From Caldifarciminota bacterium (lineage in GTDB: Bacteria > Hydrothermota > E44-bin80): a stretch of DNA of 13,493 nt. Both the position numbers and the translations under genes were made by a program. Positions within the stretch are counted from its first letter, which is position 1. Each line of letters starts with the position of its first letter. The notes below the pieces were generated by a model, which was not told the origin of the DNA, did not search any database, and saw only the letters and a list, made by a program, of their open reading frames with translations. Of this stretch, positions 12,633 to 13,493 are shown one piece after another. The DNA lies in assembly GCA_023127905.1 (NCBI GenBank), contig JAGMEZ010000227.1:1-13493 (forward strand), written 5' to 3'.

Positions 12633-12669
12633 AAATAGTGGGCAACCCTTGCGGTTGCCCACTATTTTT
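12633..12669 (+). terminator. Rho-independent terminator after the SDH-like gene
   Basis: A perfect 15-bp stem (12633-12647 with 12653-12667, GC-rich core GTGGGCAACC) with a 5-nt loop CTTGC runs into a T tract. It begins one base after the stop codon of the protease gene. Confidence 0.95.
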
Positions 12670-12781
12670 CAGCCCGACCCCAGTTCGTTCCCTAAATCTT
12701 ATTTCTTAGTACAACCCCGATTCGTGTGCAAATACTGAAAGTTTACAAGTTTACAGCCTCCGTCCCTAATTTATTTTATTC
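12670..12781. other. Gene-free stretch with short repeats
   Basis: No coding frame or RNA gene seen. It holds two related short strings (GACCCCAGTTCG and ACCCCGATTCG) and a tandem GTTTACAAGTTTACA (about 12750-12765). It looks like repeat debris between the terminator and the next promoter. Confidence 0.5.
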
Positions 12782-12810
12782 TTGACAAATTGTGTGATAT
12801 CTGATATATA
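12782..12810 (+). promoter_or_regulatory. Sigma70-type promoter of the leuS leader
   Basis: TTGACA (12782-12787), 17 nt, TATATA (12805-12810). A perfect 14-bp palindrome TGATATATATATCA (12802-12815) lies across the -10 box and could be a repressor site, though alternating AT makes palindromes easily. Transcription would start near 12817. I find no comparable promoter closer to leuS. Confidence 0.7.
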
Positions 12811-12816
12811 TATCAT

Positions 12817-12903
12817 ATGAATATAAGAGAGCGGAACTTGAATGTTTTGGATTTTTTGTTGGATGGATTAAACATAACAGTGGGGTTTATCGGACCACCG
12901 TAA
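12817..12903 (+). CDS. Possible Leu-rich leader peptide of leuS
   Basis: A 28-codon open frame with five leucines between codons 8 and 18 (L8, L11, L14, L15, L18; four TTG and one TTA), ending GFIGPP-stop. Its ATG sits at or next to the expected transcription start, so translation would be leaderless or nearly so; no ribosome binding site is visible. Codons 21-24 cover segment A of the attenuator. The Leu block just before A is where a ribosome starved of charged tRNA-Leu would stall, and the tRNA synthetase encoded downstream is the leucyl one. Pro-Pro-stop is also a slow termination context. The frame could be chance; a second mini frame (12842-12871, MFWIFCWMD) overlaps it. Confidence 0.4.
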   Translation: MNIRERNLNVLDFLLDGLNITVGFIGPP

Positions 12904-12929
12904 GATGCTATTTAATGACTAACCCCACT
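12879..12929 (+). promoter_or_regulatory. Antiterminator hairpin A:B of the leuS leader
   Basis: Segment A (12879-12887, AGTGGGGTT) is the exact complement of segment B (12921-12929, AACCCCACT), giving a 9-bp stem with a 33-nt loop that holds a small CGG/CCG hairpin. B is also the 5' arm of the terminator at 12921-12956, so the two structures exclude each other. A lies inside the possible leader peptide, so a translating ribosome would mask it. Confidence 0.6.
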
Positions 12930-12956
12930 ATCGCTTGACGAAAGTGGGGTTTTTTT
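12921..12956 (+). terminator. Intrinsic terminator B:C in the leuS leader
   Basis: B (12921-12929) pairs with C (12943-12951, AGTGGGGTT) over 9 bp. Beyond an A-A mismatch, TCG pairs with CGA around a CTTGA loop. Seven T follow (12950-12956). It stands about 140 nt after the promoter and 233 nt before leuS, with no full-size gene between promoter and terminator, which suggests an attenuator or the end of a small RNA. Confidence 0.85.
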
Positions 12957-12996: not shown

Positions 12997-13145
12997 TTTC
13001 AGAGGAAGATAACTAATAACCAAGAAATGACGAAGCCCGAAATCAGAATGATGAACAAATAACTAAATCCGAAACACCAATTTGATAGAGGGGGCTTGAT
13101 GCACTCGCAATGACTTAATAACTAAATAACTAAATAACACAATAA
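12997..13145. repeat. Mosaic of short-period repeats upstream of leuS
   Basis: Three repeat types follow one another: GATAACTAATAAC; an AATGACGAA/GAATGATGAA type (13026-13060); a piece reading TGATGCACTCGCAATGACT (13099-13117); and an 8-nt-period AATAACTA array (about 13120-13146). None codes for protein. Similar strings occur as scattered intergenic repeats in many bacteria, from memory. The remainder up to leuS shows only its ribosome binding site. Confidence 0.6.
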
Positions 13146-13189: not shown

Positions 13190-13493
13190 ATGGATACCTT
13201 TAATTTTAAGGAGATAGAAGAAAAATGGCAAAAAAGATGGAAGGAAATAGGTCTTTATAAGACACCCGAAAAACCGAAGAAAAAATATTTTCTCCTTGAG
13301 ATGTATGCATACCCATCAGGAGACATCCATATTGGACATTTCAGAAATTATACACTTGGTGACGTTGTCTGGCGTTACAAAGCAATGCATGGTTTTCAAA
13401 TTCTCCATCCATTTGGCTGGGATGCTTTCGGTCTCCCTGCCGAACAGGCAGCAATAACAAACAAGGAGAGCCCACTTAAATGGACAATGGATA
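13190..13493 (+). CDS. leuS: Leucyl-tRNA synthetase, N-terminal part
   Basis: LeuRS charges tRNA-Leu with leucine. Only the first 101 codons are inside the window. MDTFNFKEIEEKWQKRW opens the chain. EMYAYPSGDIHIGH contains the class I HIGH signature (residues 47-50), and FRNYTLGDVVWRYKAMHGF and HPFGWDAFGLPAEQAAI are specific for LeuRS of the bacterial type. GGAG (13181-13184) lies 5 nt before the ATG. Upstream are the possible attenuator and repeats, with no clear promoter of its own nearby. Confidence 0.96.
   Translation, partial: MDTFNFKEIEEKWQKRWKEIGLYKTPEKPKKKYFLLEMYAYPSGDIHIGHFRNYTLGDVVWRYKAMHGFQILHPFGWDAFGLPAEQAAITNKESPLKWTMD

What the first reader, a model, noticed from the sequence alone, without database searches (positions are those of the whole stretch)
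12782..12956. Candidate ribosome-mediated attenuator with Leu-rich leader peptide upstream of leuS
Seen: a consensus promoter; a 28-codon frame with five Leu codons in an 11-codon stretch, ending PP-stop; and three 9-nt segments in which B (12921-12929) is perfectly complementary to both A (12879-12887) and C (12943-12951), the B:C hairpin being followed by seven T. A lies inside the leader frame after the Leu block. A ribosome finishing the peptide would cover A and let B:C terminate; one stalled at L14/L15 would leave A free to pair with B and allow readthrough into leuS. Established: this is the logic of the his, leu and pheST attenuators. T-box control is the usual mode for leuS in Firmicutes, and I see no T-box motif (GGTGGAACC) here. 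Inference: leucine or tRNA-Leu charging controls leuS in this lineage by a leader peptide. A roughly 140-nt small RNA is the main alternative.
Basis: partly seen in the sequence, partly recalled or inferred. Interest (0 to 1): 0.72.

Follow-up and report, generated by a model that had tools for sequence, protein, structure and literature searches.

The report
Leucine-sensing leader switch before leuS
Just before the gene for the enzyme that loads leucine onto tRNA, these little-studied bacteria carry a short leucine-rich reading frame and an RNA switch that most likely turns the gene up when leucine-charged tRNA runs short; the principle is well known, the lineage is new for it.

Summary
Promoter, 28-codon Leu-rich frame, three mutually exclusive pairing segments and terminator lie where stated. 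The arrangement recurs in all 4 genomes held of the window's family: directly before leuS in 3, and at a contig end in the fourth. A:B pairs in 36 of 36 cells, B:C in 45 of 48. The frame stays open, with one whole-codon indel. Each leader has five Leu codons; 15 of these 20 are TTG, a minor Leu codon here (9-11%). The last Leu codon before A ends 9 nt from it in all four. I add a third conserved hairpin (A with the GPP-stop codons) and a predicted leaderless start. No T-box was found in 147 phylum genomes. Best explanation: ribosome-mediated transcription attenuation of leuS by Leu-tRNA charging. Leaderless Leu-leader attenuators before leuS are published for Streptomyces, so this is a new member of a known kind in another phylum. 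Against: two-sided covariation is almost absent with four sequences, and stalling, termination and control of leuS are inferred, not shown.

The parts
12782..12810 (+). promoter: TTGACA, 17-nt spacer ending TGn, TATATA
   Evidence: 10 of 12 consensus matches; aligned promoter kept in 4 of 4 family genomes
12817..12903 (+). leader reading frame, 28 codons and stop, five Leu codons (four TTG, one TTA); ATG 6 nt after the -10 box, so predicted leaderless
   Evidence: frame open in 4 of 4 with one whole-codon indel; TTG enrichment
12879..12887 (+). segment A, antiterminator 5' arm, inside the leader frame
   Evidence: A:B paired in 36 of 36 cells
12892..12901 (+). segment A', GPP codons and first base of the stop codon, pairs with 12880-12888 (weak protector or pause hairpin)
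   Evidence: RNAalifold; 36 of 36 cells paired; -5.7 to -8.2 kcal/mol
12921..12929 (+). segment B, shared by antiterminator and terminator
12921..12956 (+). intrinsic terminator: B:C hairpin 12921-12951 with T run 12950-12956
   Evidence: 45 of 48 cells paired; -13.4 to -18.2 kcal/mol
12943..12951 (+). segment C, terminator 3' arm
13190..13492 (+). leuS, leucyl-tRNA synthetase (5' part; runs off the window)
   Evidence: TIGR00396 E 2.6e-40 over the fragment; PF00133

Best explanation
A ribosome-mediated transcription attenuator controls leuS by the supply of charged tRNA-Leu. Transcription starts at or next to the leader's AUG, so a ribosome can load on the leaderless end. With enough Leu-tRNA it runs to the stop codon, covers A' and about half of A, and B is left to pair with C: transcription ends before leuS. 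With too little Leu-tRNA it halts at the UUG/UUA codons, which leaves A open; A pairs with B as B emerges, the terminator does not form in time, and leuS is transcribed. Shown: the sequence elements, their conservation, their position before leuS, and fold energies. Inferred: leaderless translation, stalling, termination and regulation. Speculation: that the Pro-Pro-stop end slows release and so holds the ribosome on A, and what the weak A:A' hairpin does.
For: Present once in each of the 4 family genomes and in none of the other 143 phylum genomes searched. Followed by leuS in 3 of 4; in G002 the contigs break between the two. A:B 36 of 36, B:C 45 of 48, A:A' 36 of 36 cells paired, register slides 36-60%. 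Frame kept with one whole-codon indel; 15 of 20 Leu codons are TTG against 8.6-10.7% of Leu codons in long ORFs. Last Leu codon before A ends 9 nt from it in 4 of 4; with B just made, modelled P(A:B) is 1.00 for a ribosome at either of the last two Leu codons before A and 0.21, 0.19, 0.58, 0.06 for a ribosome at stop. No T-box in 147 genomes; no PF00682 (leuA-type) match in the 4 genomes against 14 of 14 controls.
Against: With C made as well, the terminator wins in 3 of 4 genomes in every ribosome state (only G003 keeps A:B when stalled, 0.86-0.88), so the switch must be kinetic; and A:B also forms first without any ribosome, unlike textbook leaders. Only one pair changes on both sides, and shuffles give no covariation signal. 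The four leaders are homologous, so the TTG count is not 20 independent events. G001 ends in EPL, not GPP. No expression data.
Confidence: 0.85

Rival explanations
1. An independent small RNA of about 140 nt, or a small-protein gene, with its own promoter and terminator, that happens to sit before leuS.
For: The element is complete in itself; distance to leuS varies and the sequence between is not conserved.
Against: It stays next to leuS while the genes on its other side differ between genomes, has one copy per genome and none away from leuS, and a plain sRNA needs neither an A:B alternative nor an open Leu-rich frame.
Confidence: 0.07
2. An attenuator, but one that senses something else through the conserved peptide end (VGF-GPP-stop): slow proline or termination, or a nascent-peptide arrest by a ligand.
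For: VGF is invariant and GPP-stop is kept in 3 of 4 with synonymous third-base changes.
Against: The VGF codons are also A and never vary even at third bases, and GPP-stop is also A', so RNA pairing may explain them; G001 has EPL; the Leu block, its TTG bias and its fixed distance to A are not explained.
Confidence: 0.05
3. The terminator insulates a dead or unrelated short transcript, and leuS has its own promoter between 12957 and 13189.
For: A 9-of-12 promoter-like match lies in the gap (ATAACA, 18 nt, TATATT).
Against: Shuffles give 5.2 such matches for the region against 5 found; best matches in the corresponding gaps of G003 and G001 are 9 and 8 of 12 at other places; conserved A:B pairing is unexplained.
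Confidence: 0.03

Closest known systems
leuS leader-peptide attenuators of Streptomyces (predicted in S. coelicolor and S. avermitilis, PMC1262725; leuL2 of S. lividans, PMC8079986; passages seen)
   Same: Same gene, short Leu-rich leader peptide, antiterminator/terminator choice; in S. lividans the leader is reported as leaderless.
   Different: Other phylum; S. lividans peptide is 12 residues with three Leu against 28-29 with five here; no sequence comparison was made. Here the antiterminator arm lies inside the leader frame.
leu, his, trp and pheST attenuators of enterobacteria
   Same: Control codons, ribosome position decides between two hairpins. Rare Leu codons in the leu leader are the textbook case (PMC1183508, passages).
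   Different: Recalled, not compared by call: there segment 2 pairs with 1 or 3; here A pairs with A' or B, and A' holds the stop codon. A:B forms first even without a ribosome in the model.
ilvBNC attenuator of Corynebacterium glutamicum (PMC11857589, passages)
   Same: Three hairpins acting as anti-antiterminator, antiterminator and terminator, with pausing at Leu and Val codons.
   Different: Biosynthetic operon, other phylum; sequences not compared.
T-box (RF00230)
   Same: Senses tRNA charging before synthetase genes.
   Different: No match in the window or in 147 phylum genomes.

Membership tests
ribosome-mediated (leader-peptide) transcription attenuator | short translated frame rich in codons of the cognate amino acid | tested here: inconclusive
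   Frame and Leu block conserved in 4 of 4 with TTG bias; translation itself not testable
ribosome-mediated (leader-peptide) transcription attenuator | intrinsic terminator between leader frame and structural gene | tested here: met
   B:C hairpin plus T run, 45 of 48 cells paired; termination itself not tested
ribosome-mediated (leader-peptide) transcription attenuator | mutually exclusive antiterminator exposed by a ribosome stalled at control codons | tested here: met
   A:B 36 of 36 cells; footprint model favours A:B when stalled and lowers it at the stop codon in 4 of 4 when B has just been made; sequence and model only
ribosome-mediated (leader-peptide) transcription attenuator | downstream gene belongs to the metabolism of the sensed amino acid | tested here: met
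   leuS follows in 3 of 4; contig break in the fourth
ribosome-mediated (leader-peptide) transcription attenuator | expression rises on limitation of the amino acid | not testable with these tools
   needs a reporter or RNA data
T-box | match to RF00230 | tested here: not met
   strict filters could lose weak matches

The most novel reading that the evidence does not exclude
A compact attenuator variant that arose separately from the Streptomyces leuS leaders: the start codon is the transcript's first base, the antiterminator arm is written inside the leader's own codons, the conserved Pro-Pro-stop both pairs with that arm and holds the finishing ribosome on it, and the minor codon UUG rather than leucine codons at large is the control signal, in bacteria that probably cannot make leucine and seem to lack T-boxes.
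Probability: 0.3. Interest if true: 0.5.

Novelty: new member of a known kind. Interest (0 to 1): 0.38.

Why it matters
It extends leader-peptide attenuation of a tRNA synthetase to a phylum where none of my literature searches found one and where no T-box was detected, and fits the idea that such leaders arise repeatedly. Minor-codon choice, leaderless start and the overlap of frame and switch give specific predictions that a reporter in a laboratory strain can test.

Tried and rejected
Rfam on the window at gathering scores: nothing. The nucleotide search of 100 genomes (own included) missed G001 and gave full-length homologues only in G002 and G003. Exact pattern for A and B in 120 phylum genomes: 14 with a match, 4 of them the family; the other 10 genomes were judged by the printed strings and by the model search, not one by one. 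Covariance model on 80 leuS loci: L033 and L032 strong, three further matches at E 1.1-2.2 taken as chance, one of them the other strand of the known L033 terminator. Terminator and frame scan in the 350 nt before the leuS match in 90 other phylum genomes of 143 (two with under 200 nt of upstream sequence): hairpins in 9. Two of these, G033 and G103, have a Leu-rich short frame nearby and were not followed. The same scan found 2 of the 3 family positives given to it, so misses are possible. A looser scan of 80 loci, 77 with 200 nt or more upstream: 6 hairpins, of which only the two family loci have the leader; its automatic antiterminator check failed on both of these, so it is uninformative. 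Other synthetase genes of the four genomes, 24 loci of the 37 matches: one weak hairpin, no comparable leader. A recurrent promoter with ATG beside it was checked as a second leader: its frame is not conserved. Of 241 promoter-ATG places only 30 were fetched.

Mended: T-run position, and ribosome cover of A (5 of 9 nt, not 6).

Full report
What is there. Shuffled leaders never gave the three-segment complementarity (0 of 5000 at 7, 8 and 9 nt) and the window holds no other instance. The Leu block alone would be weak evidence.

Relatives. A nucleotide search of 100 genomes, the window's own included, gave two full-length homologues, G002 (83%) and G003 (75%), and missed G001. A protein search for leuS brought in L032 (SOKD01000241.1), whose upstream DNA has the same arrangement; a pattern search shows it is G001. 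These are all 4 genomes held of the family. Over their first 101 residues the relatives' LeuS are 78-88% identical to the window's. A covariance model built from the four finds one copy in each of them and none in the other 143 phylum genomes searched (strict filters).

Position. In G000, G001 and G003 the leader is followed by leuS. In G002 the leader's contig ends 41 nt after the match, and the leuS match begins at base 23 of another contig whose length, 20820, is that of SOIS01000091.1. Upstream genes, named by likeness of the translations (only the window's UPF0029 and SDH-type protease were scanned; glgA is recalled): glgA in all four; UPF0029 in G000, G001 and G002; between these and the leader an SDH-type protease in G000 and a 216-aa frame in G002. 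So the leader stays with leuS while neighbours on the other side come and go.

Conservation. Outside the leader the intergenic DNA hardly aligns, yet the three codons inside A (GTG GGG TTT) are identical in all four and B and C nearly so. A:B is paired in 36 of 36 cells, B:C in 45 of 48, A:A' in 36 of 36; register slides give 36-56%, 44-60% and 36-58%. Only one pair, in the upper terminator stem, changes on both sides, and the shuffle control shows no covariation signal with four sequences (128, 500 and 500 of 500 shuffles reach the observed score). Support is preserved complementarity among diverged sequences.

The frame. It is open in all four (28, 28, 29 and 28 codons) and its single indel is a whole codon. 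The N-terminal part is unconserved; ends are VGFIGPP, VGFIGPP, VGFVGPP and VGFSEPL. Each has five Leu; of the 20, 15 are TTG, 4 TTA and 1 CTA, while TTG is 8.6-10.7% of Leu codons in long ORFs of loci I had fetched from these genomes (the ORF set is mechanical). One other frame of the stretch is open in two of the four.

A third hairpin. RNAalifold proposes A with the GPP and stop codons. It is weak (-5.7 to -8.2 kcal/mol) against A:B (-16.0 to -21.5) and B:C (-13.4 to -18.2). In G000 the fold of the whole leader prefers a different hairpin there.

How it would work. The last Leu codon before A ends 9 nt from it in all four. With an assumed footprint of 15 nt either side of the first P-site base, a ribosome waiting at that codon covers 2 of the 9 nt of A, one waiting at codon 14 or 15 none, and one at the stop codon 5 of 9 and all of A'. 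In constrained folding with B just transcribed, P(A:B) is 1.00 in 4 of 4 for a ribosome at either of the two last Leu codons before A, and 0.21, 0.19, 0.58 and 0.06 at the stop codon. With C also present the terminator wins in 3 of 4 genomes in every state; G003 keeps A:B when stalled (0.86-0.88). The choice must therefore be made before C appears. Without a ribosome A:B also forms first, which speaks against the simplest textbook reading.

Context. No T-box was found in 147 phylum genomes; among 14 controls 5 matched, 2 over the cut-off. No PF00682 match was found in the four genomes (two of them under 90% complete) against 14 of 14 controls, so these bacteria probably do not make leucine by the usual route. 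The ATG lies where transcription should begin. In 14 of 30 fetched places with such spacing the ATG opens a frame of 81 codons or more, so leaderless starts are plausible; but another recurrent promoter of this kind has no conserved frame. The pattern occurs 43-75 times per genome against 2-12 for its reversed control.

What is known. Classical attenuators before leuS were predicted in two Streptomyces species (PMC1262725, passages), and in S. lividans a leaderless 12-residue leader with three Leu, a hairpin and a U run is reported before leuS (PMC8079986, passages). A 2010 survey said that leader-peptide systems had been shown only in Proteobacteria and Actinobacteria before its own hisS case in bacilli (PMC2965389, passages). 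A leaderless leader is also known for trpL of Sinorhizobium (PMC7298713, passages). Searches joining Cloacimonadota, WOR-3 or Stahlbacteria with leader peptide or attenuator found no such report (in one search only 20 of 393 listed; subscription papers are mostly not held). Hence: new member of a known kind.

Lineage. The three relatives match NCBI records titled Candidatus Cloacimonadota. The window's phylum is therefore more likely the WOR-3 group, which has one published isolate (PMC12285271, abstract in the listing). This is inference from contig lengths.

Noticed in passing
12737-12775: Interspersed repeat: 7 further places in the same genome match this stretch just upstream of the promoter (E 0.001 or better).
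   Followed up: partly
12635-12672: A long perfect hairpin with T run ends the SDH-type protease gene upstream; seen in the sequence, missed by the scan.
   Followed up: no
13099-13115: GATGCACTCGCAATGAC in the gap before leuS also occurs in the corresponding gap of G003 (L033), in otherwise unalignable DNA; possibly a dispersed repeat.
   Followed up: no
G000-G003, 30 places fetched: Promoters with ATG 4-8 nt after the -10 box are common in this family; 14 of 30 open frames of 81 codons or more, suggesting frequent leaderless mRNAs.
   Followed up: partly
genomes G000-G003: No PF00682 (leuA-type) match in 4 of 4 genomes against 14 of 14 controls: probably no usual leucine synthesis.
   Followed up: partly
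   Followed up: partly
L170 (G103), upstream of leuS: A weak hairpin (-7.7) about 112 nt before the leuS match with a 22-codon frame holding 6 Leu: possible independent leader in another family of the phylum.
   Followed up: no
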